Assembly: GCA_000018565.1 (NCBI GenBank)
Contig: CP000875.1
Location: 2,991,199 to 3,055,198 of the forward strand
Reading direction: 5' to 3'
DNA from: Herpetosiphon aurantiacus DSM 785
Lineage (GTDB): Bacteria; Chloroflexota; Chloroflexia; Chloroflexales; Herpetosiphonaceae
DNA length: 64,000 nucleotides
Shown piece after piece: positions 41,985 to 53,706 of the stretch (its first letter is position 1; every line of letters begins with the position of its first letter). Made by a program: the position numbers and the translations under genes. The notes beneath the pieces were generated by a model. That model worked only from the letters and a program-made list of their open reading frames with translations. It made no database searches and was not told the origin of the DNA.

Positions 41985-43430
41985 TCATGGCAAGCTCTGA
42001 TCTAGTGCGATATGTTGGACACAGCGAAAGCCTGTGCCATTGCTTGGTTGATCGTTAATTTGCTCGTTGCTAATCCGCCAGGTGCTATGCAAAACTCCGG
42101 CCATGCTAGCGACCGAGCCACCTCGGCGGGTATGCCGGGCAGTTGGAATCACTGGCCCACGTGGATTAAGCCGATCGTTGGACTGACAGGCATGCGGATC
42201 ATACCAATCGGCAGTCCATTCAGCAGCATTGCCAAGCATATGCGCCACCCCATAAAAACTTTGACCCTCGGGTAGGCTATCTACGTTCATCAAGGCTGGG
42301 CTAAGCTTGCCTTGGGTAAAATTGAGCTTAGCGGGCTGCCAATCGTTGCCCCAAGGAAAGCGCCAATAATGCTTACCACGGGCTGCTACCTCCCATTCGG
42401 CCTCGGTTGGCAGGCGTTTGCCTTGCCAAATACAATAGGCTTGGGCTTCACTGGGCGTTATTTGCACCACTGGTTTATCCAAATGTTCAGTAATTGCTGA
42501 ATTTGGACCATGAGGATGCCGCCAATTTGCTCCATTGATCAACTCGAAACCATTACTATCGCTCCAGACAAAGCCTGCCCCCTGCGTTTCAGCTTGGGTT
42601 AAGAGGCTGGGGTTAGCCTCACTATAACGCAGAAAATCGCGATTGCTGACCTCAAAGCGATCGATGGCAAAGGCATCAAGTTGAATCAAACGCTGTGGTT
42701 GTTCATCGGCAAACCACGAGCTATCGCAGCCTGTCTGATGCACTTGGCACAAACGCGTATATTCAGCAATATCAGCATCACTACTGCCTTGCAAATATTC
42801 ATCAGCAGGAATTAAGGCCATGCTGCTTGAAGCATCATGAGATGCCGCAGTTGCTTGAAATAATGAAAACAGCGGCCAGCCAAGCACACTGATCAGCCCA
42901 AATAAGCCCAACCACTGGTACGGTTTGTTGGGAAATTTTGATTTAACTTGAATACTCGGCGCTGGGGTTGGAAGATTTAAGGGCAAATCTGATGCATCGA
43001 TTTGGGTATCAACAACGAGATTGAGGACACTTGGAGCTTGGTTAGGAAGAATGCTTTGGACAACCTGGCTCAGCAATGCTTGATCGAGTTGTTGTTTGAA
43101 ACCACTTTGCAGATAGCTCTCAAGCCAAGTAGTTGTCAGTGGTTCGGGGGGAATAATACTAGTCGCACTGAGCATTGTGATCAGCCATGGTTGAGTTGCC
43201 CGACCTTCGGCCAGGACAATCCAAATTAATGCGGCTAAAGTTTTATCTTCGACCATCACGCGTTGACGGGAAGCATAGCGTAATGTACGGAGTGTATCAA
43301 CCCCAATGCTCAAGCAATCGGCTATATACGCTTCTGTACTTGGCATGGAGCCACTTCGTTGACTTTGGACTAACTTTAACCCATCCCCGACTGCCCGACA
43401 AAACTGCTGACGATTGGTGATATCAGCCAT
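41985..43430 (-). CDS. SUMF1/FGE-domain membrane protein (non-catalytic Cys pair absent)
   Basis: A 481-residue protein. An N-terminal cytoplasmic domain (1-165) of unknown type is followed by one TM segment (172-195) and an extracytoplasmic SUMF1/formylglycine-generating-like domain (204-470). Family segments include IDRFEVSNRDFLRY, WEVAARGKHYWRFPWGNDW, MLGNAAEWTADWYDP and RHTRRGGSVASMAGVLHSTWRIS. The Cys pair used for catalysis in true formylglycine-generating enzymes is not in the RRGGS region, so it is more likely a binding or structural protein, as in many bacterial SUMF1 proteins. GGAGG lies seven bases before the ATG at 43430. Confidence 0.78.
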   Translation of the reverse strand: MADITNRQQFCRAVGDGLKLVQSQRSGSMPSTEAYIADCLSIGVDTLRTLRYASRQRVMVEDKTLAALIWIVLAEGRATQPWLITMLSATSIIPPEPLTTTWLESYLQSGFKQQLDQALLSQVVQSILPNQAPSVLNLVVDTQIDASDLPLNLPTPAPSIQVKSKFPNKPYQWLGLFGLISVLGWPLFSLFQATAASHDASSSMALIPADEYLQGSSDADIAEYTRLCQVHQTGCDSSWFADEQPQRLIQLDAFAIDRFEVSNRDFLRYSEANPSLLTQAETQGAGFVWSDSNGFELINGANWRHPHGPNSAITEHLDKPVVQITPSEAQAYCIWQGKRLPTEAEWEVAARGKHYWRFPWGNDWQPAKLNFTQGKLSPALMNVDSLPEGQSFYGVAHMLGNAAEWTADWYDPHACQSNDRLNPRGPVIPTARHTRRGGSVASMAGVLHSTWRISNEQINDQPSNGTGFRCVQHIALDQSLP

Positions 43431-43662
43431 TGTGCTACCTCCATTAAGCACGATCAAACACTGCTAGCTTACCGCATATCTATACCATTTTAAATCCTCT
43501 GCTGTAATATTTCAGAGAAGTCTGTAGCTCCTCTACAGGATTCTCTGTACTTTATTAGAGACTATTTGCGCAATCTTCTTCAACTACCCTCCAGTGCTTT
43601 CCATTCACTAAACTGCTAGGCTAGAAATATCGATTCTTGGTATCGAAAGGAGGTATTGGTTG

Positions 43663-43851
43663 ATGACATGTTTGGTGGGGCTGCTGCTACTTTTGGGACT
43701 GGCAAGCATCCTCGTGCTGATTGCGCTGCCCAATGGTCGGCGCTTGGAAATGTTGCAATGGTCGATCCGTGGGTGTTTGGTTGTAGTGGTCAGTTTGCTG
43801 GGCCTGAGTTGTTTTATTGGCAGCCTGTTGCTGTTGCTGAGGGCACGATGA
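43663..43851 (+). CDS. Two-TM miniprotein opening the RT-Cas1 operon
   Basis: A 62-residue protein with two hydrophobic helices: residues 4-22 (CLVGLLLLLGLASILVLIAL) and 38-59 (GCLVVVVSLLGLSCFIGSLLLLL), joined by a basic loop NGRRLEMLQWSIR. AAAGGAGG lies nine bases before the ATG. Its stop overlaps the RNase H start as ATGA, so the two are translationally coupled. No family recognised. Being first in an operon with an SPFH-like protein, it may help anchor a membrane assembly; that is inference. Confidence 0.7.
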   Translation: MTCLVGLLLLLGLASILVLIALPNGRRLEMLQWSIRGCLVVVVSLLGLSCFIGSLLLLLRAR

Positions 43852-44297
43852 AGATTTGGCTGCAAATTGATGCAACGCCAGGCAATTTGGCTGGTCGGGC
43901 TGGTTTGGGCTTGGTCATTCGCCAAGACGATGGGGCGATTTTGCGCTGGGCAATGCAGCAAGCTCCCGCCGACACTAATAATGTGGCGGAATATCAAGCC
44001 TTAGTTCATGGGTTGCGTTTGGTCCAACGCTATTATCCCCAAGCGAATGTCATCTGTCTGACCGATAGTTTGTTGATTGTCGATCATCTGGCTGGGCGGT
44101 GTGCCGTGCGCACGCCGCATTTACACCCGTTGCATAGCCTAGCTTGTCAATTAATCAGTCGTTGTGTGAGTTTTCGCGTTGTACATATTCGGCGAGCCTA
44201 CAACCGCCTCGCCGATGCCCTCGCTTGGGAGGCACTCAGCGGAACCAAGGCCTTGGTGCAATGGGTCAATACGCCACAGGAGCATCTGTATGAGTAG
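43848..44297 (+). CDS. Type 1 ribonuclease H
   Basis: A 149-residue RNase HI-like nuclease that cuts RNA in RNA:DNA hybrids. The four acidic positions are in place: Asp8 (LQIDATPG), Glu48 (NNVAEYQALVHGLRL), Asp73 (CLTDSLLIVDHL) and Asp123 (AYNRLADALA). It looks like the compact form without the HBD or basic handle. Coupled to the upstream TM miniprotein and overlapping the SPFH gene by eight bases. In an operon with a reverse transcriptase and Cas1, it could remove the RNA template from cDNA before integration; this is an inference from context. Confidence 0.88.
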   Translation: MKIWLQIDATPGNLAGRAGLGLVIRQDDGAILRWAMQQAPADTNNVAEYQALVHGLRLVQRYYPQANVICLTDSLLIVDHLAGRCAVRTPHLHPLHSLACQLISRCVSFRVVHIRRAYNRLADALAWEALSGTKALVQWVNTPQEHLYE

Positions 44298-45714
44298 TTT
44301 GGAACAGCATGTTGATACGTTATTTGAGGATGGAGCAGCATTGTTAAATGGCAACCCGAGCCAAAAACTTGGCCAACAGTTAACATTTAATGGTTTAGCC
44401 ACACCACCGCAATTGATTGCCCGTCGATTTTTGGGCAAGTTGGTTGATGTTTTAGTGCCGCCAGCCTTTACCGCGATCCTCAGTGGCCCGCAAGGTTTGC
44501 GGCGTTGCCTAACCAGTGGTAGCTACAATCTTTGGGATATTCCGCGTGGTCCAGTAATGGTGCAATGGGTTTCGATGAGCCGTATGCGCCGCGAGATTGG
44601 GCCAATCGAAGGGTGGAGCGCCGATAAATGGCGTGTTCGCTTTACCGTCGTCGTTGATTTCGAGGTCTGCGATCCTTATCTGATTGCCAGCCATCAAGCC
44701 CCGCTAACCGTGCTTGAAGATGTAGTGCGGAGCGCTGCAATGCAGCAATTCGAGCGTATGAGCCACGAAGCCTTGACGGGCTATGATCCTGAGATTGGCG
44801 GGATTGATCGGCCTGCGCTGCGCATGTTTGAGCAATTGAGCCAAGAACCAGCTTTGGCTGGCCTGACCCTGATTCGCTTGCAAATTCTTGATCGAGCTGG
44901 CGATCTGCGACGGATTGAGGCGGCAACTGAAACTGCCGTTGCCATTGCCCAGCTTGAAGAATCAACCCGTTTGCAACGCGCCGAAGATCAAGCAGCCTTA
45001 TTGACGATCGATGGGCAGGTGCTGCGCCAATCGGCGGAAGCAGCTTTGCGCATGGCCGCCACGATTGATGAAGGTCGCGAACAGCTTGCCCGCCATGATA
45101 TTGCCGCCCAACGTCATGCGCTCAATGCCCAATTGCATGTGCTCGAAGCCAATATGCGGGCACAGGTGGCCGAAATTGCCCGCGAAGAGCAGGCTTGGCA
45201 ACACGAACAACAACGCCTGATGCTGGAATGGCAAAGCCAAATTCAAGCCCAACAAAGCGAGCAAACCCACGATCAGCAGTATCAGATGTTGGATCTTCAG
45301 CATCGTTTTGAGGCTTTGCATGCCGAACGCGCTCATGAAGTTGAAGAACGTCGCCATCAACGCGAGCGTGAGTTGCGGGCTATGCAACAGCGCCATGAAC
45401 AAGTATTAATCAATCAGCGAGAACGGCTTGAACATTGGCGTTCGCAGCATGAACGCTCACTCCAACTAACCCAACAACAACATCAAGAGCAATTGGCCTT
45501 AATTCAGGGCACGACTACCATTGCCAGCCAAGCCGCTGGCTATTTGGCCCAATTTGGCATGCCAAGTCGGCGCATTGGGAGCAACGATTTGGCCCATGAT
45601 CCAACGTTAATTGCTGGTGAAGGTTTGCGTAGCTTGCGCATGTTGCAAGAGCAATTACAACCCCAAATCACCGAGCCAGCCGCCCCAAGCGAGGCCAGCG
45701 ATGCTAGCCATTGA
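44290..45714 (+). CDS. SPFH/band-7-like protein with long coiled coil
   Basis: A 474-residue protein. Residues 45-200 fit an SPFH (prohibitin/flotillin-like) beta-rich core: VPPAFTAILSGPQGLRRCLTSGSYNLWDIPRGPVMVQWV ... VRFTVVVDFEVCDPYLIAS ... TVLEDVVRSAAMQQFERMS. Residues about 210-440 are a very long Gln/Glu/Arg-rich coiled coil (AEIAREEQAWQHEQQRLML, RQRERELRAMQQ). No TM segment. SPFH proteins assemble into ring scaffolds at membranes. AGGAG lies seven bases before the ATG. Its stop codon TGA is followed at once by TTG of the next frame in the same register, so the two may be coupled or occasionally fused. Confidence 0.72.
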   Translation: MSSLEQHVDTLFEDGAALLNGNPSQKLGQQLTFNGLATPPQLIARRFLGKLVDVLVPPAFTAILSGPQGLRRCLTSGSYNLWDIPRGPVMVQWVSMSRMRREIGPIEGWSADKWRVRFTVVVDFEVCDPYLIASHQAPLTVLEDVVRSAAMQQFERMSHEALTGYDPEIGGIDRPALRMFEQLSQEPALAGLTLIRLQILDRAGDLRRIEAATETAVAIAQLEESTRLQRAEDQAALLTIDGQVLRQSAEAALRMAATIDEGREQLARHDIAAQRHALNAQLHVLEANMRAQVAEIAREEQAWQHEQQRLMLEWQSQIQAQQSEQTHDQQYQMLDLQHRFEALHAERAHEVEERRHQRERELRAMQQRHEQVLINQRERLEHWRSQHERSLQLTQQQHQEQLALIQGTTTIASQAAGYLAQFGMPSRRIGSNDLAHDPTLIAGEGLRSLRMLQEQLQPQITEPAAPSEASDASH

Positions 45715-46695
45715 TTGCGCCAAGCAACACATTTGAATCTGCCAGCACTTTGGCATCCTGAGCATGGCGTGCTGTTTGAGCAGCGAGCAGTCTCGGTGGC
45801 GCGTTGGGTGCTGCCAATTCTGGCGTTGCCGCCAACCAACAATCTGCCACGCTGTATTAATCAACAGTGGTTGCGCTGGTTGGCAGGCTGGCATGGCTTG
45901 CCCGATGCCGCAAATACCCGTTTGCAATTGCGGATTTGGCGGCATGCCCATGGGTTAAGTTTGAGCTATGTGGGCATGGTTTGGCATGAACAGGCCAGTA
46001 TTGCCGTGCAGATTGCCCAAACCGCCGCCCGTTGGATGCTTGGGTTATTGCCAACGAGCTATGCCTGCCAAGTGATCGAGCAGCACGATCAATTAATTGA
46101 CCAGTTGCAGGATCAATGGCTGCGCAGTTTGCCCTATCAGGCTTTTGTGCGTTTGCAACATCAGGCTATTGTCGCTCAGCCCTTTGTTTCGGCTTACCCC
46201 AACCATGCTTGGCAAGCCAGTTTGCGAGCCTTGTGGGCCAGCGCTAGCCCCAGCCTAATTAGCCTCACTGTTCAGCCAACCCAGCTCTATCCCGAGGAAC
46301 GTGCCGAACTTCAACGCCAGAGTAACCATCCAGCAGCCCAACTGGCCCAACGCTGGCAGCATTGTTGGCAACGGAGTTTGTTGGTTTGTAGCGCTGATCC
46401 ATTGTTGCTGGTAGCAGGATTACAAGCCGACCACGCGCCTAGCTCGCAACAACAATTACTCGAAATTTGTTTACCACAAGCCGAAGAGCATGCTGCGGCT
46501 TTAGCGGAAGTTTGCTGGGGCAACTGTGAACCATGGGCCGCAACGGATTGGGCCTATCAACGCTTAGCCCAATTGCTCGCCAACGAACAACTGGTGCATT
46601 GGCTAAGCTTGCCCGATTTAAGCCCCAACGAACGCCAAACCTATCACATTTCAAGCATAAATTCTATGGAGGAACCCGATGCAACCACGCTATGA
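45715..46695 (+). CDS. Unknown protein of the RT-Cas1 operon
   Basis: A 326-residue protein in the same reading register as the SPFH gene, beginning at a TTG directly after its TGA (TGATTG). No ATG or good ribosome site is available near the start, so translation probably depends on reinitiation or rare read-through. The composition is rich in Trp, Gln, Leu and Ala. Segments such as LQLRIWRHAHGLSLSYVGMV, AARWMLGLLPTSYA and the C-terminal WAYQRLAQLLANEQLVHWLSLPDLSPNE faintly recall the N-terminal parts of HerA/TraG-type proteins without the ATPase; not reliable. No RAMP or Cas6 glycine-rich loop seen. It overlaps the RT gene by 17 bases. Confidence 0.6.
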   Translation: MRQATHLNLPALWHPEHGVLFEQRAVSVARWVLPILALPPTNNLPRCINQQWLRWLAGWHGLPDAANTRLQLRIWRHAHGLSLSYVGMVWHEQASIAVQIAQTAARWMLGLLPTSYACQVIEQHDQLIDQLQDQWLRSLPYQAFVRLQHQAIVAQPFVSAYPNHAWQASLRALWASASPSLISLTVQPTQLYPEERAELQRQSNHPAAQLAQRWQHCWQRSLLVCSADPLLLVAGLQADHAPSSQQQLLEICLPQAEEHAAALAEVCWGNCEPWAATDWAYQRLAQLLANEQLVHWLSLPDLSPNERQTYHISSINSMEEPDATTL

Positions 46696-47974
46696 ATCGG
46701 CGATGTTGGCCGAAATTGCCAGCGTCGATAATTTGACTCGCGCTTGGAGCCATGTGCGGCGTAATATTCGCATTTCGCAACGTGGGCGCTCACATGGCCC
46801 CGATGCAGTGACGATTTTGGATTTTGAGGCCGCTTGGGTTGATCACATGCAACAGTTGGCAATGGAATTGCAAAGCCAAATTTATCGGCCTTTGCCACCA
46901 CGGCGGCTTTTTTTGGATAAACGTGATGGTGGCAAACGCAGTATTGCGATTCTCGCCGTGCGCGACCGGATTGCCCAACGCGCGGTGTTGCAAATTCTTG
47001 AGCCAGAAATCGAGCCAACTTTTTTGGATTGTTCGTATGGCTTTCGGCCTTACGTTGGCGTGCCCCATGCCCTAACCCGAATCGAACGCTATCGCCAGCA
47101 GGGTTTGCAATGGGTTGCCCACGCTGATATTAGCGATTGTTTTGGCACAATCGATCATCAAATTTTGCTCAGTCAATTACATCAACGAATTAGCGATCGG
47201 GCAGTCGTCGAATTAATTGGCCAGTGGCTAAGCGTTGGCGTGATGGAAGATGCCGCAACCACCGAAGCCAGTAATTGGTGGGATGATGGCGAAGATTTGC
47301 TTGAACGCTTGGCGAAACATGGCGAAGATCTGCTCTGGCCAAATCAGGGCTACCCTCAGGCTGGCCCATCCTATGCTCCGCAAATGCTTGATTTTGAGGC
47401 CAACCGCACCGATAGTTTGCGCAAACGAGCCTTGCAAGGTCTCGCCAGCAACGCCGCCCTGTGGGGCATAACCCATAGCAAACGGGTTATTAGTGGTTTG
47501 CGCAGCTTGGCTCCGTTATTCAAACAAGTGCCTGGTGGCAGCCTAACATGGGGCGCTGCTGGGATTGCAACCCTAGCCTTAATTCCGCTGAGCCAGCGTT
47601 TGTTGCGCCAACATGAACGTGGCACGCTCCAAGGTGGGGCAATTTCACCGATGCTCGCCAATATCTACCTCGATTCCTTTGATCGGGCGATGACTGAGCG
47701 GGGCCATATTTTGGTGCGATTTGCCGATGATTTTGTGCTACTGGGCGCACATCAAGCGGCAGTTGAGCAAGCGCTTGCCGATGCAACCAATGTGCTCAAG
47801 CGCTTACGCCTCGCCACCAAAGAGAGCAAAACTGGGGTGCAGCATTTTAATGATGGCCTGACCTTCCTTGGACATCGCTTTGCCGCTCAACCACAGGATG
47901 CAGCCGACCGCTGGCCGACCTTCGAAGCGGCTGAGCGGGCGATTAAAGAGCGTTTGCGCAAACCTCGTACATAA
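46679..47974 (+). CDS. CRISPR-associated reverse transcriptase with internal insertion
   Basis: A 431-residue RNA-dependent DNA polymerase of the group II-intron-like/CRISPR type. Motifs: GGKRSIAILAVRDRIAQRAVLQIL (RT2 region), SYGFRP (119-124), catalytic Asp150 in HADISDCFGTIDH, GTLQGGAISPMLANIYLD (315-332), FADD (348-351) and LTFLGHRF. Between motifs 3 and 4, about residues 189-312 are occupied by an extra domain (WWDDGEDLLERL ... LRKRALQGL ... TWGAAGIATLALIP) instead of the usual spacing of about 60 residues. No maturase X, D or HNH domain and no fused Cas6 or Cas1. GGAGG lies six bases before the ATG. Followed by cas1 and cas2, so a role in copying RNA for spacer capture is likely. Confidence 0.9.
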   Translation: MQPRYESAMLAEIASVDNLTRAWSHVRRNIRISQRGRSHGPDAVTILDFEAAWVDHMQQLAMELQSQIYRPLPPRRLFLDKRDGGKRSIAILAVRDRIAQRAVLQILEPEIEPTFLDCSYGFRPYVGVPHALTRIERYRQQGLQWVAHADISDCFGTIDHQILLSQLHQRISDRAVVELIGQWLSVGVMEDAATTEASNWWDDGEDLLERLAKHGEDLLWPNQGYPQAGPSYAPQMLDFEANRTDSLRKRALQGLASNAALWGITHSKRVISGLRSLAPLFKQVPGGSLTWGAAGIATLALIPLSQRLLRQHERGTLQGGAISPMLANIYLDSFDRAMTERGHILVRFADDFVLLGAHQAAVEQALADATNVLKRLRLATKESKTGVQHFNDGLTFLGHRFAAQPQDAADRWPTFEAAERAIKERLRKPRT

Positions 47975-48057
47975 AATCTGACAAGCAGTTTGATAATGAA
48001 CCTGTATCTTGTACCCCTCGCCAATATTGAAGCCAGCGTTAAAAAGGATCGTCAGCC

Positions 48058-49059
48058 ATGCCAACTCTCTATTTAAACGAGCAAGGCACCCGTTTGGGCA
48101 AAAAAGATGAGCGCTTGATCATCCTACGTGGTCAAGAGTTGATCAACGATATTCCAGTAATCAAAGTTGATCGAGTCATTGTGATGGGTCAAGGGGTGCA
48201 GGTATCGCATGCCGCAATTGTATTTCTGGCCCAACGAGGAATTCCCTTAATTTTTACGACCCAATCGGGTGGCTCACAGAAGGCCATGGTTTCGGCGGGC
48301 TTGGGTAATAATGCGGCTTTGCGCCTCGCCCAATGCCGCATTGTCGATAACCCCCATTTGGCGGTTCCCTTGGTGCAGGCGATTGTAGTTGGCAAAGTTG
48401 CCAATCAAATTCAACTGTTGGAGCGTTATGGCAGCGATTGGGGTGGGATGGGGCTACGTGCCAAACAAACCATGCAGCATGTCATTCAACAAACGCAACA
48501 CATGCCCGATATCGAGCAATTGCGTGGCCTCGAAGGAGCTGGGGCAGCGGCCTATTGGGGCACATGGAGTGCTGTTTTCAAAACTGCCTGGGGTTTTGCG
48601 GGCCGCGCTTATCGCCCAACCCCCGACCCATTGAATGCCTTGTTGAGTTTTGGCTACACACTGCTACTCAACGATTTGATGACTGCCGTGCAAGCCCTCA
48701 GCTTTGATCCCTATCTCGGCGTGTTTCATACTGTGCAGTTTGGGCGACCCTCGTTGGCGCTCGATCTCGAGGAGGAATTTCGGCCATGCATCGTTGATCG
48801 TATGGTGTTGGATGTGCTTGATGCTGGTTTATTGCAAATGAGCAATTTCAGCCGCACTGAAAAAGGCTTTTTGCTCAACGATCGGGCGCGTAAAAGCTTT
48901 ATTCAAGCCTATGAGCAACGCATGCAAACCCCGATTCGCTATCAAGGCACTGGTAACAACGAGCCAATGCGACGGGTACTTTTACTACAAACTCAGCATT
49001 TAGCGCGGGTTCTGCAAGGCGAAGAGCCGCGCTATCAGCCCTATGTTTGGCGTGATTGA
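48058..49059 (+). CDS. cas1: CRISPR-associated endonuclease/integrase Cas1
   Basis: A 333-residue Cas1, metal-dependent integrase that inserts spacers as a complex with Cas2. Catalytic residues are Glu159 (RGLEGAGAAAYW), His224 (YLGVFHTVQFGRPSLALDL) and Glu239 (EEEFRP). The N-terminal beta domain reads MPTLYLNEQGTRLGKKDE. AAGGA precedes the ATG at ten bases. It is not fused to the RT although both lie in one operon. Subtype cannot be set by eye; Cas1 proteins linked to RTs are usually from type III systems (literature knowledge). Confidence 0.95.
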   Translation: MPTLYLNEQGTRLGKKDERLIILRGQELINDIPVIKVDRVIVMGQGVQVSHAAIVFLAQRGIPLIFTTQSGGSQKAMVSAGLGNNAALRLAQCRIVDNPHLAVPLVQAIVVGKVANQIQLLERYGSDWGGMGLRAKQTMQHVIQQTQHMPDIEQLRGLEGAGAAAYWGTWSAVFKTAWGFAGRAYRPTPDPLNALLSFGYTLLLNDLMTAVQALSFDPYLGVFHTVQFGRPSLALDLEEEFRPCIVDRMVLDVLDAGLLQMSNFSRTEKGFLLNDRARKSFIQAYEQRMQTPIRYQGTGNNEPMRRVLLLQTQHLARVLQGEEPRYQPYVWRD

Positions 49060-49078
49060 GCGCTAGGGCATCGTTAAA

Positions 49079-49190
49079 TCCCTCACCCCCAACCCCTCTC
49101 CCACTGCGGCAGGCGAGGGGCGTTCCAAGCGTCATGATCGGATGGTTCCCCCTCGCTCGCTTGCGGGAGAGGGGGCTAGGGGGTGAGGGC
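49079..49190. repeat. Palindromic dispersed repeat between cas1 and cas2
   Basis: CCCTCACCCCCAACCCC, CTCCCACTG and GGCGAGGGG on the left face CCCCCTCGCTCGC, GGGAGAGGGG and GGGGGTGAGGG on the right, the same architecture as the interior of the MITE-like element at 27848-28024 but without its terminal repeats. A second GGGGGTGAGGGC piece lies near 49254. It accounts for most of the 271-base cas1-cas2 gap. Confidence 0.75.
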
Positions 49191-49330
49191 ATCCAAATCG
49201 ACGGTACATCCCACCCAATCATTGTTAACAACCTACCCTTATACGGCAGGAGTTGGGGGTGAGGGCATGAAATTCATGTGCTTTGTGTCCTTCATGGAGC
49301 ATTTTGCATTGACTAGCCGAAGGATCAAGT

Positions 49331-49609
49331 ATGTTCATCTTAATTAGTTACGATATTCCCCACGATAAACGGCGGAGTAAAATCGCCAAAACCCTCGAAA
49401 ATTTTGGCAAGCGCGTGCAATATAGCGTATTTGAATGCCAACTGACCGATAGCCAATTGGCCGATGTGCGGGGGCGGCTGACTGCGTTGGTTGTGCCCAA
49501 CGAGGATAGCATTCGCTTTTATTCGTTGCCCAAGGATGCAGTGACCGCGATGTTAATTCTTGGGCATGGGGTGGTAACCCACGACCCAAGCTTCTATTGG
49601 ACTGATTAG
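49331..49609 (+). CDS. cas2: CRISPR-associated protein Cas2
   Basis: A 92-residue ferredoxin-fold protein that bridges two Cas1 dimers during spacer integration. The N-terminal MFILISYDIPHDKRRSKIAK has the conserved Asp8, then FGKRVQYSVFECQL and the C-terminal IRFYSLPKDAVTAMLILGHG. AAGGATCA precedes the ATG. Separated from cas1 by a repeat element; its last four bases overlap the convergent WYL gene. Confidence 0.95.
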   Translation: MFILISYDIPHDKRRSKIAKTLENFGKRVQYSVFECQLTDSQLADVRGRLTALVVPNEDSIRFYSLPKDAVTAMLILGHGVVTHDPSFYWTD

Positions 49610-51426
49610 CTCGAATTCAGGTCGATTGCCAGAATCCGATCAAAGCGAAAAGCCCGCTCCTGTTGGCGTAATTCACACCAGCCGCGCATCCCGGTGCTGG
49701 TCAGCTCGAGCGGGCGAATCGTGCGCGTCGTGATGCGATGCTCGGCTGGCGTGTAATAGCGCACGGTCACGCTTTGCTGGTTGTTGATCGCTTGGCGACA
49801 TGTTTGGCGAGCCTGTTCGACCGTGATCTGCGCTCGTGGTTGCTGCCCAACCGCGAGCGACTGGCTCGTAGCCAGTGGTTGCGGCGCATCACTTAATTGG
49901 AGACGTTCCCAATCGTCGTCGATGATGCACCGTTGCTCAAACGACAGCTCGGCCAACAGCCGCTGGGCTTGCTGATTGAAGGCAAGCCGATGGCTGGGCA
50001 GGTGCTGAGTTGCAATCCGCAAGGCCATTATCTGTATGCTCGTCTGCGTATCGAGCCGTGGCGTAGGCGTGGCATGCAGTCCCAACACCTTGGCTACCAC
50101 CTGCTCCGCTCCTTGGCACACCACCCGTTGGGCTTGATCAAACCCAGGTTGTAGGTAGGCTTGAATCTGCCAATTGGCGTGGGCGCTTGCCACGGCTTCG
50201 GGGCTACCCTCAAGCAGCGTGATGCGACGCAGGCGCAATGGCGGCGTGGCCTGAAGTTTTGCGATCAAGGCCTGAATAAGGGCGGGCCGTTCAGCATACC
50301 ACTGATCAATCGGCTGCCAAAAACTACTGAGATCAAGTCCGTTAGCCAGCGCAGCGGCGACGGATGCTTGGGTAATGCGCCACCCATGGCTCGTTGCCAT
50401 CCCCCAAGTTAATCCCCACACCTGTAAGGCTGCGGGGAGCGCCGCACGTTTAGGCAAGCGCAGGCCATCGAAGGCTGGCGCTTGAGCTGCGAGCTGCTGC
50501 CAGCCATGCCAAAAGAGCCAGCCCTTGGCTAAGCTCACCACGCCCGCTGGTTGCAAGACGGTGCGCAACCAACCATGCACGAGCCGAATCTGCTGGGCTG
50601 CTGGCAATCCATTCCACGCTGGATGATCGTGGAGCAAGGCAGCCACATCCATGCTGCGCCGCTGGGCTTGGGCCTCCATCAACCGTTCCAAATCGGCAAA
50701 TAATGCCGCCCAATCGGGGCTACGCCATGCGACCAAGCCACGTGCAGGCGGGTTACAGGTGATGAGCTGTTGGTGTAACAAGCGTTGTTGCTCAGCGATT
50801 GGGCTATGCAGCCAAACCCGACCACGCGGCGTAATGCGCCATTGATTAAGCCGATCGGCCAGCCAGCCGGCTGATTGCGCGATATGCAGCGCCAAGCCAG
50901 CTGCTTGGCGGGGTTGAGGGGTATTGGCACAGGCGGCAAGCAACGCGACCACCGCTTGAAACAAGGCTTGCAAGCTGGCAGCAACAGGAGTTGGTGGCAG
51001 TGGCGGAGTGCGGCGTAACCAACGGCTGGTATCATTAATTAAGACCACCGTGCGGCCTGTGGTCGTGCGGATTGGCACCACCAAGCCTAAGGCAGCCAAG
51101 CGTTGCTCCGACGAGAGCTGCTCCAGAGTAGGCCAAGGAGCCTGCCAGCGCCAGAGATCAAGCGCTTGTGGCGTTGGCAACGGCTGCTGACCCTGCCACC
51201 ATGCCTGCAACAATGCTCGGTCGGCGGCAGTTAAGGAACGGCGCACCAGCTGGCGATAGTGCGGTGTTTGCCAGTGGCGCTGGAGCGCAGCGGCTAAAGC
51301 ATGGCCAGTTTGGCTACGTTGGCGCGAACAATCGGTATAATGAGCGAGAGTGCGCAACGTCCGAACGGCCACTGCATGCAGGGCATTCGTGGCATGAAGC
51401 TTGACAGCGCTGCTAGAATAGGCCAT
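49606..51426 (-). CDS. WYL-domain protein beside the CRISPR array
   Basis: A 606-residue protein. The first 500 residues are helical, with no recognised ATPase motif, in the style of the winged-helix/helicase-C-like proteins that carry WYL domains. A C-terminal WYL module (about 540-600) reads NNQQSVTVRYYTPAEHRITTRTIRPLELTSTGMRGWCELRQQERAFRFDRILAIDL. WYL proteins often control CRISPR or phage-defence genes (family knowledge). It is divergent from the array, and the intervening 153 bases hold the array leader, so one region may set both. GC content looks somewhat higher than in the flanking genes. ATG at 51426 with AAGGA upstream. Confidence 0.8.
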   Translation of the reverse strand: MAYSSSAVKLHATNALHAVAVRTLRTLAHYTDCSRQRSQTGHALAAALQRHWQTPHYRQLVRRSLTAADRALLQAWWQGQQPLPTPQALDLWRWQAPWPTLEQLSSEQRLAALGLVVPIRTTTGRTVVLINDTSRWLRRTPPLPPTPVAASLQALFQAVVALLAACANTPQPRQAAGLALHIAQSAGWLADRLNQWRITPRGRVWLHSPIAEQQRLLHQQLITCNPPARGLVAWRSPDWAALFADLERLMEAQAQRRSMDVAALLHDHPAWNGLPAAQQIRLVHGWLRTVLQPAGVVSLAKGWLFWHGWQQLAAQAPAFDGLRLPKRAALPAALQVWGLTWGMATSHGWRITQASVAAALANGLDLSSFWQPIDQWYAERPALIQALIAKLQATPPLRLRRITLLEGSPEAVASAHANWQIQAYLQPGFDQAQRVVCQGAEQVVAKVLGLHATPTPRLDTQTSIQIMALRIATQHLPSHRLAFNQQAQRLLAELSFEQRCIIDDDWERLQLSDAPQPLATSQSLAVGQQPRAQITVEQARQTCRQAINNQQSVTVRYYTPAEHRITTRTIRPLELTSTGMRGWCELRQQERAFRFDRILAIDLNSS

Positions 51427-51579
51427 AGTCAATCCTTCGGATGGTCACATGTCAATCAATCTGGCATATCTAGTTTACCATAATTTTCTTGCGTACACAT
51501 TGAATCAATTCCGTGGCATGGGTTATCGCTTGCATCCTGCTGCTGGTGTAGCCTGTCTTCGAAAAGTGGACACCCAGGT
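51427..51579 (+). promoter_or_regulatory. Presumed CRISPR leader / divergent control region
   Basis: Rather AT-rich interval between the WYL start and the first repeat. The left end of the array is the leader side because the array degenerates at its right end, and the repeat's final ATTAAAAC resembles the 5' handle (ATTGAAAC type) of crRNAs read rightward. A leader signal as such cannot be proved by eye. Confidence 0.55.
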
Positions 51580-52268
51580 ATTTCAATCAACGCCCCGAGG
51601 AAGCGGGGATTAAAACCTGAAGAAATCGCGGCGATGAAGGCAGAGCTACCAGAAATTTCAATCAACGCCCCGAGGAAGAGGGGATTAAAACACAGACTGT
51701 ACATAGCCAAGCTGCAGGATGTCCTGCATTTCAATCAACGCCCCGAGGAAGAGGGGATTAAAACGTCCCCTGAATCTGATCATCCGACCACGGCGTGGTA
51801 TTTCAATCAACGCCCCGAGGAAGAGGGGATTAAAACCCTTACCATAAGCGCCACAGTTGATGCAGCGCAAGCATTTCAATCAACGCCCCGAGGAAGAGGG
51901 GATTAAAACTTAGTTATCTTTTTCAACTCGCCAAAAAGATAGGTGTATTTCAATCAACGCCCCGAGAAAGAGGGGATTAAAACCAAAATCCCGGAAATTG
52001 CTTCCGGAAATTTGTTGCGACATTTCAATCAACGCCCCGAGGAAGAGGGGATTAAAACATTAAGCCTGGACTTTGCGTATCGCATTTTCGATGGATTTCA
52101 ATCAACGCCCCGAGGAAGAGGGGATTAAAACTCATTGCCAAGTGGTCCCCTTCGATGCTGATTGCATTTCAATCAACGCCCCGAGGACGAGGGGATTAAA
52201 ACCCACGTTGTGGCTTTTTTGCCAATCTTCCAGGCCGAAATTTCAATCAACGCCCCGAGGAAGCGGAG
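51580..52268 (+). CRISPR. CRISPR array, 10 repeats of 37 bases, 9 spacers
   Basis: Repeats start at 51580, 51655, 51728, 51800, 51873, 51947, 52022, 52095, 52166 and 52240. The repeat begins ATTTCAATCAACGCCCC, has GAGGAAGAGGGG in the middle and ends ATTAAAAC; CCCC and GGGG arms form a small stem. Spacers are 38, 36, 35, 36, 37, 38, 36, 34 and 37 bases. Variants: repeat 1 has GAAGCGGGG, repeat 6 has GAGAAAG, repeat 9 has GGACGAG, and repeat 10 has GAAGCGGAG and then decays, lacking ATTAAAAC. Adaptation genes lie upstream; no interference genes seen in the window. The array sits 153 bases from the WYL gene start. Confidence 0.97.
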
Positions 52269-52371
52269 TTATTGCCACAACCAAAACTTGCCAAAACCCA
52301 CAATTTGATGCAAGATCAACACGGCCCAGCGCCCATGCTCCACACTGCTTATTCCACACATTAGAGGCTCT

Positions 52372-53706
52372 ATGCGCATAACTCGCGAACTCGAAAATCA
52401 GTATCATAAGCTGGATTCATCGTTATGGTTTCGGCCCACGCTCATGGCAATTGGCTCGGCTATTTTGGCCTTTTTCACAGTTGAACTTGATCGAGTTTTC
52501 GATTTTGATCATGTGGCTTTTCTACGGGCTGGGATCGACGATGCGCGGGCGATTCTCTCTTCTGTCACCAGTTCGATGCTCACCGTCACCACCGTTACCT
52601 TTTCGATCATTATGGTAGCCTTGGTACTAGCGTCGCAGCAATTTTCGCCGCGAATTATTCGTAATGTGATGCGCGATACGCCTTCGCAATATGTGCTGGG
52701 CACATTTATTGGCACATTTATTTATAGTTTGCTGGTGCTGGGCCAGATTAACGATCAAGCATCGTTTGTCTTTGTGCCGATTCTCTCACTTGCCACTAGC
52801 ATTATGTTAACTCTCTTGAGTATTGTGGCCTTTATTTATTTTGTACACCACATCGCCGAGACGATTCAAGCCAGTGTCTTGATTGCCCGCGCTGCCGAAC
52901 GCACAATCGATGTGTTGGATCGGCGCTTCCCCGAAACACTGGGCCATGCGATGGAGCAAATTCCGCCACCGCCAATCCCCAATGAAACCCCAACCACGAT
53001 TTACAATGCCAAGGGTGGCTATATTCAGGCGATCGATCCTGTGCCTTTGTTGGAGCTAGCTCAGCGCTTCGATGTGGTGATTTATATGGATCGGGCGGTC
53101 GGCGATTTTGTGCCAACTGGCAATCCACTCTTACACATGGTTCCGCAACGTGAGCTTGATCCCGATAGCATCGCTGAATTTCAAGATGTGTTTGAGATTG
53201 GTTTAGAACGAACGTTGTTTGATGATGTGTTGTTTGGCATTCGCCAGCTCGTGGATATTGCGCTCAAAGCGATTTCGCCTGCGGTCAATGACCCCAGCAC
53301 CGCGATTAATGCGATCGATTTGTTGAGCGATGTACTGGCGCAGGCCATTCGTCGCCCTGAGCAATCGCCATGTCGCTACGACGAATTTGATCAGCTACGG
53401 GTGGTTGCGAATACAATTACATTTCGCCAGATGTTAGGCACTGCGCTCAACCAAATTCGCCAATATGCCAAAGGCGAAATCGCCGTAACTGCCCGTTTGT
53501 TGGTGTTACTGAATGAAGTTGCGCTAGCATGTAACGATCAAGAACGTCGGGCCATGCTCTGGGAGCAAGCCTGCATCATCACGCGGGGAGCCGATCAAGC
53601 CATCACTGAGCCATTCGATCGCGCCTATATCAACGAACATTTGCTGACGCTTGCCAATACACTAGCAATCGCCTCTGAGCAACGCATCACGCTGAAAGTT
53701 GGCTAA
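52372..53706 (+). CDS. DUF2254 family membrane protein
   Basis: A 444-residue protein with about four TM helices in the first 175 residues (LMAIGSAILAFFTVELD, SSMLTVTTVTFSIIMVALVLAS, VLGTFIGTFIYSLLVLGQ, ILSLATSIMLTLLSIVAFIYFVHHI) and a large C-terminal cytoplasmic domain. SQQFSPRIIRNVMRD after TM2 and AVNDPSTAINAIDLL in the C-terminal half are the recognisable DUF2254 segments. Function unknown; it has been suggested to be channel-like because of its layout, which I cannot support here. It ends 20 bases inside the convergent GGDEF gene. Confidence 0.85.
   Translation: MRITRELENQYHKLDSSLWFRPTLMAIGSAILAFFTVELDRVFDFDHVAFLRAGIDDARAILSSVTSSMLTVTTVTFSIIMVALVLASQQFSPRIIRNVMRDTPSQYVLGTFIGTFIYSLLVLGQINDQASFVFVPILSLATSIMLTLLSIVAFIYFVHHIAETIQASVLIARAAERTIDVLDRRFPETLGHAMEQIPPPPIPNETPTTIYNAKGGYIQAIDPVPLLELAQRFDVVIYMDRAVGDFVPTGNPLLHMVPQRELDPDSIAEFQDVFEIGLERTLFDDVLFGIRQLVDIALKAISPAVNDPSTAINAIDLLSDVLAQAIRRPEQSPCRYDEFDQLRVVANTITFRQMLGTALNQIRQYAKGEIAVTARLLVLLNEVALACNDQERRAMLWEQACIITRGADQAITEPFDRAYINEHLLTLANTLAIASEQRITLKVG

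What the first reader, a model, noticed from the sequence alone, without database searches (positions are those of the whole stretch)
43663..52268. RT / RNase HI / SPFH / Cas1-Cas2 adaptation island with no interference genes
Seven plus-strand genes, mostly overlapping or within 100 bases, encode a 2-TM miniprotein, RNase HI, an SPFH/coiled-coil protein, an unknown protein, a reverse transcriptase, Cas1 and Cas2. A WYL gene and a 10-repeat array follow. No cas3, cas6, cas9, cas10 or csm/cmr gene is seen in 64 kb. RT-linked Cas1 can acquire spacers from RNA (established for RT-Cas1 fusions); RNase H and a membrane scaffold in the same unit would be an unusual addition. Possibly a self-contained RNA-to-CRISPR memory module that relies on a distant effector.
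Basis: partly seen in the sequence, partly recalled or inferred. Interest (0 to 1): 0.9.

Follow-up and report, generated by a model that had tools for sequence, protein, structure and literature searches.

The report
RNase H–SPFH reverse-transcribing CRISPR adaptation module
A bacterial gene set that writes CRISPR memories carries, besides the expected reverse transcriptase and Cas1–Cas2, its own RNase H, a small membrane protein and a stomatin-like scaffold protein, and many relatives among the Chloroflexota keep much of this set together, which suggests a dedicated pathway for turning viral RNA into stored DNA.

Summary
The island is real and conserved: 2-TM miniprotein, RNase H (DEDD intact), SPFH protein (fold confirmed), unknown protein, group II-like RT, Cas1, Cas2, then a convergent WYL gene and a CRISPR array. 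A pattern scan of 84,980 species genomes for this SPFH family gave 16 loci: RT and Cas1 adjoin it in 16, RNase H in 15 (the other is cut off). The miniprotein is in 21 of 23 loci tested. RNase H–RT–Cas1–Cas2 without SPFH occurs in a deeper Chloroflexota family. The RT carries an insert with a hydrophobic stretch that solved group II RTs and Cas6-RT-Cas1 lack. "No interference genes" is local: type III effector subunits adjoin 4 of the 16 loci, and this genome has three type III effector loci without nearby cas1 or array. I read it as a variant of RT-containing type III adaptation modules (probably clade RT-CRISPR-9) that copies phage RNA on a membrane scaffold, RNase H clearing the RNA strand. 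RNA acquisition is not shown; the two protospacers found lie in phage-type genes, in opposite orientations. A distant SPFH–unknown pair occurs without CRISPR genes, so SPFH is not CRISPR-exclusive. My searches found no paper linking RNase H or SPFH to CRISPR adaptation.

The parts
43663..43851 (+). 2-TM miniprotein, 62 aa, starts MTC with RGC before the second segment (relatives mostly MVWC...RGC); stop codon overlaps the RNase H start (ATGA)
   Evidence: hydropathy segments 3.05 and 2.49; counterpart in 21 of 23 loci tested, 21 of 21 of the order/family, 0 of 2 f13 loci
43848..44297 (+). RNase HI-type nuclease, 149 aa; D8, E48, D73, D123
   Evidence: Pfam RVT_3 1.8e-17; the four residues invariant in 16 aligned sequences; PDB Rv2228c 6e-22
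44290..45714 (+). SPFH (stomatin/prohibitin/flotillin-type) protein with long coiled coil, 474 aa, no strong TM segment
   Evidence: Band_7 in 5 of 13 family members; model; stomatin, HflK/C, flotillin, vault matches; hydropathy maximum 1.53
45715..46695 (+). unknown protein, 326 aa; close relative only in G003, distant relative beside an SPFH gene in G131
46679..47974 (+). group II intron-type reverse transcriptase, FADD, separate from Cas1
   Evidence: RVT_1 2.5e-27, TIGR04416 5e-75; GsI-IIC RT 5e-58 and Cas6-RT-Cas1 2e-44 in PDB
47267..47614 (+). insert between RT motifs 3 and 4 (about residues 197-312) with Gly/Ala-rich hydrophobic stretch
   Evidence: absent in the five PDB alignments shown and in the L113 intron RT; hydropathy 1.56-1.99 in 14 of 14 relatives, 1.34 here
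48058..49059 (+). Cas1 integrase
   Evidence: Pfam Cas_Cas1 5e-82; E159, H224, E239 invariant in 9 aligned Cas1 (that these are the catalytic positions is recalled)
49060..49330 (+). intergenic stretch with CCCTCACCCC-type palindromic repeats between cas1 and cas2
49331..49609 (+). Cas2
   Evidence: Pfam CRISPR_Cas2 5.5e-24
49606..51432 (-). WYL-domain protein, 608 aa, convergent with cas2, between cas2 and array
   Evidence: Pfam WYL 1.2e-9; WYL domain in 9 of 9 proteins tested at this position in relatives
51433..51579 (+). probable leader
   Evidence: precedes the first repeat on the cas side; the far-end repeat is truncated
51580..52266 (+). CRISPR array, nine full 37-nt repeats and one truncated repeat; eight spacers of 34-38 nt measured

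Best explanation
This is the spacer-acquisition arm of a type III CRISPR-Cas system, specialised for copying RNA. The RT copies phage transcripts held by Cas1-Cas2 into cDNA (inferred). The dedicated RNase H then degrades the RNA strand of the RNA:cDNA hybrid, either before integration so that a second DNA strand can be made, or after integration of an RNA/cDNA spacer so that the array becomes all DNA (inferred). The SPFH oligomer, the 2-TM protein and probably the hydrophobic RT insert hold these enzymes together at the inner membrane (inferred from fold and conservation). Cas1-Cas2 integrate into the adjacent array, under control of the WYL protein (inferred). In this genome the crRNAs are used in trans by one or more of the distant type III effectors (inferred). 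Shown: gene content, active-site residues, SPFH fold, linkage, related repeats at arrays of relatives, type III neighbours in part of the relatives, spacers of a sister array that match phage-type genes.
For: This SPFH family sits beside RT-Cas1 in 16 of 16 loci of a pattern scan of 84,980 species genomes and beside the RT in all 14 strong matches among 400 Chloroflexota genomes. RNase H: 15 of 16 loci; 18 of 19 RT neighbourhoods of the same order (17, L079 through the contig of equal length L150); 3 of 5 RT-Cas1 loci outside the order. 2-TM gene in 21 of 23 loci. Pairwise distances of RT, Cas1, RNase H and SPFH over 13 loci correlate at r 0.81-0.96; without the window 0.83-0.94, reached by 0 of 2000 permutations in each of six pairs. 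No group II intron RNA at this RT, while the control locus L113 gives one. The RNase H profile has one match each, in the module, in 6 genomes with the module, none in G001, G002, G005 and one partial in G004. Type III-D or III-B genes adjoin the module in relatives. Three type III effector loci here lack cas1 and array in the stretches read. G001 lost the module by deletion but keeps a 53-repeat array with no match to 14 module-linked query proteins in 19 kb, as expected if an effector acts in trans. G003 holds 488 repeats. Two G003 spacers match phage-type head and helicase genes.
Against: No RNA acquisition, RNase H activity or membrane location is shown. Of the two protospacers one is antisense and one sense to the gene, so there is no sign of strand selection. 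One window spacer shares 24 of 25 nt with a spacer of an I-E-like array of G003, so its target is also reached by a presumably DNA-acquiring system. SPFH is missing in 7 of the 20 RT neighbourhoods read and in the f13 loci, so it is not essential. A distant SPFH homolog (profile 7e-14) overlaps a distant relative of the unknown protein in G131, beside S1/receiver and GAF kinase genes and without RT, Cas1 or RNase H matches, so SPFH-unknown may be an older signalling pair. RNase H was not found in 2 of 5 RT-Cas1 loci outside the order (L091, L159). 6 of 16 SPFH loci show no type III-related neighbour (several are short contigs). The RT model failed (pLDDT 51), so the insert's structure is untested, and its hydropathy here (1.34) is below usual TM values. 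The effector partner is not identified: both III-B Cas10s also occur in G004 and G005, where the array query found none of these arrays. M. mediterranea acquires from RNA without an operon-encoded RNase H as far as I recall (no call).
Confidence: 0.57

Rival explanations
1. The module acquires DNA only. The RT serves as a DNA-copying gap-filler or primase during prespacer making and integration, and RNase H removes RNA primers or R-loop RNA near replication or transcription forks that feed Cas1-Cas2.
For: The protospacers found lie in phage-type genes, one of them sense; a spacer is shared with an I-E-like array. Priming of DNA synthesis by CRISPR-associated RTs is reported (PMC10415136, start of abstract seen in the listing).
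Against: An RNase H kept with an RT across deep divergence is most simply explained by RNA:cDNA hybrids made by that RT.
Confidence: 0.24
2. SPFH, the 2-TM protein and RNase H form a separate defence or signalling device (for example a membrane-acting guard of the RT) that merely travels with the adaptation genes.
For: A distant SPFH-unknown pair stands beside sensor-kinase genes without CRISPR genes in G131; SPFH and the 2-TM gene are absent in some RT-Cas1 loci; in the G045/G047 loci SPFH is divergent from RNase H-RT.
Against: RNase H stays with RT-Cas1 where SPFH is absent; correlated distances; no toxin-like domain among the hits.
Confidence: 0.15
3. The island is a decaying remnant whose effector was lost; it no longer acquires spacers.
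For: Only 10 repeats here and a second 5-repeat copy 77 kb away; G001 deleted the module; repeats inserted between cas1 and cas2.
Against: Active-site residues are intact; 2-TM, RNase H, SPFH, unknown, RT, Cas1 and Cas2 are 91-98% identical in G003 (WYL 83%), whose array pieces carry 488 repeats and 470 different spacers of 484.
Confidence: 0.1

Closest known systems
RT-CRISPR clade 9 (Chloroflexi), Toro et al. 2017, PMC5541045 (passages read)
   Same: RT separate from Cas1, Chloroflexi, partial or unknown effector; the text says no complete operons were available for clade 9
   Different: Term searches of the main text for RNase H gave none, and for ribonuclease one reference title; membership of this RT in clade 9 is probable, not tested by a tree
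RT-Cas1 fusion module of Marinomonas mediterranea (type III-B), PMC11014452 (passages read)
   Same: Group II-type RT with Cas1 and Cas2 for spacer acquisition
   Different: RT fused to Cas1 there; the authors discuss RNase H digestion only as a possible alternative
Cas6-RT-Cas1 (7kft)
   Same: RT motifs, 2e-44 with the RT profile
   Different: Three-domain fusion; the alignment runs from chain residue 491 to 504 where this family has its insert
Group II intron reverse transcriptase (GsI-IIC RT, 6ar1)
   Same: RT motifs, best PDB match 5e-58
   Different: No intron RNA here; insert between RT3 and RT4
SPFH proteins: stomatin, HflK/C, prohibitin, flotillin, major vault protein
   Same: SPFH fold followed by a long helix
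   Different: No strong TM anchor of its own; the close family is linked to RT-Cas1 in every locus found
RNase HI of Rv2228c type (3hst)
   Same: Sequence profile and DEDD residues
   Different: Stand-alone gene in a CRISPR operon

Membership tests
RT-containing CRISPR adaptation module | group II-type RT next to or fused to Cas1, with Cas2 | tested here: met
RT-containing CRISPR adaptation module | no group II intron RNA around the RT | tested here: met
   Rfam finds only CRISPR repeats at 43000-53500; positive control L113 finds Intron_gpII
RT-containing CRISPR adaptation module | acquires spacers from RNA | not testable with these tools
   needs experiment
Complete type III CRISPR-cas locus | Cas10 and RAMP effector genes in the locus | tested here: not met
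   none within about 123 kb of the array, so this locus is not filed as a complete type III locus; effector subunits adjoin 4 of 16 related loci
RT-CRISPR clade 9 (Chloroflexi) | RT clusters with the three published Chloroflexi RTs | not tested
   reference sequences not at hand
RT-CRISPR clade 9 (Chloroflexi) | RT not fused to Cas1, Chloroflexi host | tested here: met
Group II intron | intron RNA structure | tested here: not met
   against control
RNase HI | DEDD active site | tested here: met
   D8 E48 D73 D123 invariant in 16 sequences
SPFH superfamily | SPFH/Band 7 domain fold | tested here: met
SPFH superfamily | oligomeric membrane scaffold | not testable with these tools
   hydropathy maximum 1.53 in the protein itself

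The most novel reading that the evidence does not exclude
The SPFH protein builds a membrane-anchored cage or ring (like HflK/C or flotillin, or vault-like) that encloses RT, RNase H and Cas1-Cas2: a compartment in which phage RNA is reverse-transcribed, freed of RNA by RNase H and finished as double-stranded DNA before integration. That would be a retrovirus-like RT plus RNase H route to CRISPR memory, unlike the direct integration of tailed RNA reported for an RT-Cas1 fusion.
Probability: 0.2. Interest if true: 0.93.

Novelty: new variant of a known kind. Interest (0 to 1): 0.76.

Why it matters
How an RNA protospacer becomes double-stranded DNA in an array is open: the M. mediterranea study could not exclude an RNase H route but argued that it did not fit the added tails (PMC11014452, passage), and a 2022 review draws digestion of the RNA template only as a dashed possibility (PMC9048733, figure legend). 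A lineage that encodes RNase H next to the RT makes this step directly testable by knock-out and in vitro. SPFH and 2-TM partners would be the first sign, as far as my searches show, that CRISPR memory formation can be organised at a membrane. The module could also be tried as a transcript recorder with a built-in RNase H.

Tried and rejected
Chance neighbourhood: rejected by synteny. Unknown protein as part of the core: rejected, 2 of 60 genomes including this one. SPFH as strictly CRISPR-bound: not upheld; of the two weak SPFH matches, G131 holds a distant SPFH–unknown pair without module genes, and G360 showed no match to window proteins in its 4.6-kb contig. The RT as a group II intron: rejected. 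The Herpetosiphon RT discussed in print (GI 159898445, ABX04564.1) is described there as an ML group II intron RT and is probably the one at L113 beside the III-D genes, not this one (inferred from type and position). Pairing the array with one effector by presence and absence: failed. RT structure prediction: failed, pLDDT 51, not used. SPFH profile against PDB sequences: nothing; settled by fold comparison. The VIA list cannot exclude other folds.

Spacer targets among phages and plasmids: no convincing match, best E 0.3. Given were the window array (phages only), the L019 array (phages and plasmids), 7.8 of 15 kb of L161, 7.9 of 12 kb of L163 and all of L164 (phages). The window array had no protospacer in this genome; a weak 26-nt match in G003 overlaps the repeat and is not counted. 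Plasmid search with the RT: 632 records match, the 15 shown are group II introns. RT loci L068-L072 (2-4 kb each) showed no Cas1, Cas2 or RNase H match; three more RT matches (G110, G139, G378:C23) were not read.

Literature without a paper that links RNase H or SPFH to CRISPR RT modules: listings. Kojima and Kanehisa 2008 was not read. Supplementary tables were not available, so a listing of these genes there cannot be excluded.
Full report
What is there. The window lies in a 6,785,430-base genome (C1:2991199-3055198); the replicon sizes equal those I recall for Herpetosiphon aurantiacus DSM 785. From 43663 to 49609 seven genes run on the plus strand, several overlapping: a 2-TM miniprotein, RNase H, an SPFH protein, an unknown protein, an RT, Cas1 and Cas2. 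A WYL-domain gene runs back towards cas2, and a CRISPR array of nine full repeats and one truncated repeat follows.

Conservation. A search of 400 Chloroflexota genomes (for most, only the four best candidates per genome were scored) found the SPFH protein in 16, 14 of them strong matches, and the RT at E 1e-30 or better in 32. I read 20 RT neighbourhoods from 19 genomes. By ORF comparison 17 have RNase H and 13 have SPFH, one of the latter a fragment; an eighteenth RNase H appears on L150, a contig of the same length as that of L079. The two without are L092, of the same order, where only pieces of RT and Cas1 remain, and L091, outside the order. So RNase H is in 18 of 19 neighbourhoods of the order.

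A pattern scan of 84,980 species genomes with the SPFH alignment gave 16 loci (the pattern step can miss relatives). RT and Cas1 adjoin SPFH in 16, RNase H in 15 and Cas2 in 15; L145, the exception in both, is cut by contig ends. Several of these contigs are those already read. Record titles name Chloroflexota groups for 15 of 16; L141 is titled Chromatiaceae but is 99.9% identical to L140 over 14.3 kb, so it is probably a binning error.

A hidden part. Upstream of RNase H, in another frame, lies a 61-70 aa protein with two hydrophobic segments, mostly starting M-V/I-W-C with RGC before the second. It is in 21 of 23 loci tested: 21 of 21 from the order and family of the window, 0 of 2 from family f13. 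Variants are MTC in the window, RSC in L073 and MACC in L077; in L082 only one segment passed the threshold. Its stop codon overlaps an ATG or GTG start for RNase H in 10 of 19 contexts printed.

Deeper relatives. Five RT–Cas1 loci outside the order were read. In three of Chloroflexota family f13 (L156, L157, L158) RNase H precedes RT–Cas1–Cas2 without SPFH, with the DEDD residues visible in the printed proteins; L159 and L091 have RT–Cas1–Cas2 without an RNase H match. The distance between RT motif 3 and motif 4 is 153-201 residues in the 7 module-type RTs where it could be measured, including three of f13, against 48 in the group II intron RT of L113; in L159 and L091 the first motif was not found. 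The five PDB alignments printed, Cas6-RT-Cas1 among them, lack the insert. The insert carries a Gly/Ala-rich hydrophobic stretch.

Proteins. RNase H keeps D8, E48, D73 and D123 in 16 aligned sequences. Its profile has one match each, in the module, in the six of ten genomes that carry the module; G004 has a partial one and G001, G002 and G005 none. Other RNase H families of these genomes were not searched. The SPFH model (pLDDT 75, pTM 0.40) matches stomatin, HflK/C, prohibitin, flotillin and vault protein. Long helices can inflate such scores, but the compact SPFH domain match (107 residues, rmsd 2.3) does not rest on them. The RT model failed. Distances of RT, Cas1, RNase H and SPFH over 13 loci correlate at r 0.81-0.96; species relatedness alone could also cause this.

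A result against exclusivity. In G131, of the same genus code as two f13 genomes with the module, a distant SPFH gene (profile 7e-14, BLASTP 23% over 190 residues) overlaps a distant relative of the unknown protein (24% over 140 residues, E 3e-4), followed by S1/receiver/HATPase and receiver/GAF/HATPase proteins, with no RT, Cas1 or RNase H match in 16 kb. SPFH–unknown may thus be an older pair that was recruited to the RT module, with the unknown protein kept in Herpetosiphon.

Effectors. L083 has III-D genes (csx10-type, cas7-type, csx19), Cas6, Csm6 and CARF genes before the module; L085 and L086 have a Cas10/Cmr2 and Cas6. Among the 16 SPFH loci, effector subunits were found beside 4 and any type III-related gene beside 10. 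Arrays of 11 of the 20 neighbourhoods read have repeats with a GCCCCG core followed by GAAGG (L074, L079-L082, L085-L089, L092), akin to the window repeat GCCCCGAGGAAGAGGGG. In the window's genome Cas10 loci lie near 0.66, 0.80, 2.31 and 3.17 Mb; the first three have no array found and no cas1 in the fetched 20 kb, and the 0.80 Mb Cas10 is 42% identical to that of L085. The module is therefore probably coupled in trans, but presence and absence in the genus does not single out a partner.

Activity and history. G003 has the same operon plus one more gene with a TM-type stretch between RT and cas1 and 488 repeats in four contig pieces, with 470 different spacers of 484; the last piece ends in the same DUF2254 gene that follows the array here, so this may be one array of about 36 kb. 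G001 has the same site with everything from 41979 to about 51331 missing except scraps of cas2 and the WYL gene, yet keeps 53 repeats. One G003 spacer matches a phage-type DNA helicase gene in G002, G004, G005 and on this genome's plasmid (31-32 of 33 nt aligned, antisense in all four); another matches a phage head-type gene in G004 (33 of 35 nt, sense). The types rest on PHROGs (8e-19 and 1.6e-8); Pfam gave none. Of the G003 array pieces L161 and L163 were searched in genus genomes; L163 gave no protospacer that I recognised. Two protospacers cannot show RNA origin.

Reading. The parts fit a spacer-acquisition unit in which an RT copies RNA and a dedicated RNase H removes the RNA strand, held at the membrane by an SPFH assembly and a small TM protein. 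What is shown is the composition, its conservation and the integrity of active-site residues; RNA copying, the RNase H step and the membrane location are inference. It belongs to the known kind of RT-containing adaptation modules, probably the published Chloroflexi clade 9, for which the authors wrote that no complete operons were available (passage). The RNase H, SPFH and 2-TM members are, by my searches, not described.

Noticed in passing
L016:10376-12889 (C1 about 3.120-3.123 Mb): Second small array with the same repeat, a near-identical WYL gene copy and a 27-aa cas1 tail, in reverse orientation 77 kb from the window array; its first spacer equals the first spacer of the window array.
   Followed up: partly
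L193:7028-12320 (plasmid C2 about 132-137 kb): Another WYL gene (54.5% identical over 609 aa) beside a 23-repeat array with a related repeat, without RT, Cas1, RNase H or SPFH matches in 20 kb; WYL and array seem to travel as a pair.
   Followed up: partly
L194 (G005:C143): 14-repeat array with a related repeat (GCCCCGACGACGAGGGGTTTAAAAC) and no module match in 6 kb.
   Followed up: no
L195:245-8441 (G131): SPFH-unknown gene pair with overlapping ends beside S1/receiver/HATPase and receiver/GAF/HATPase genes; possibly a signalling or conflict system from which the module's SPFH came.
   Followed up: partly
L019, L161, L163, L164 (G003): At least 488 repeats of this type in one genome, possibly a single array of about 36 kb broken over four contigs.
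   Followed up: partly
L180 (G001:C1:862000-881000): Natural deletion of the whole module with a 53-repeat array left behind.
   Followed up: yes
L073:2863-5193, L074:4946-7357, L076:2843-5161: A 770-800 aa protein, with von Willebrand A domains in L073 (the other two by sequence clustering), sits between cas1 and cas2.
   Followed up: no
L019:12308-13114: Extra 268-aa protein with one TM-type stretch (hydropathy 2.09) and no Pfam match between RT and cas1 in G003.
   Followed up: no
L113:17138-19060: Group II intron RT with intron RNA directly behind the III-D genes at 2.31 Mb; probably the Herpetosiphon RT that earlier papers listed as CRISPR-associated.
   Followed up: yes
L165 (G003:C68): An array of 61-nt period, I-E-like by recall, holds a spacer that shares 24 of 25 nt with the first spacer of the window array.
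   Followed up: partly
window 49060-49330: Palindromic CCCTCACCCC repeats between cas1 and cas2, of the kind that might be a small mobile repeat.
   Followed up: no
G004:C43:280707-280907: Partial RNase H-like match (67 residues) in a genus member without the RT module.
   Followed up: no
L141: Chromatiaceae-titled MAG contig 99.9% identical over 14.3 kb to a Chloroflexaceae contig (L140); probable binning error.
   Followed up: partly
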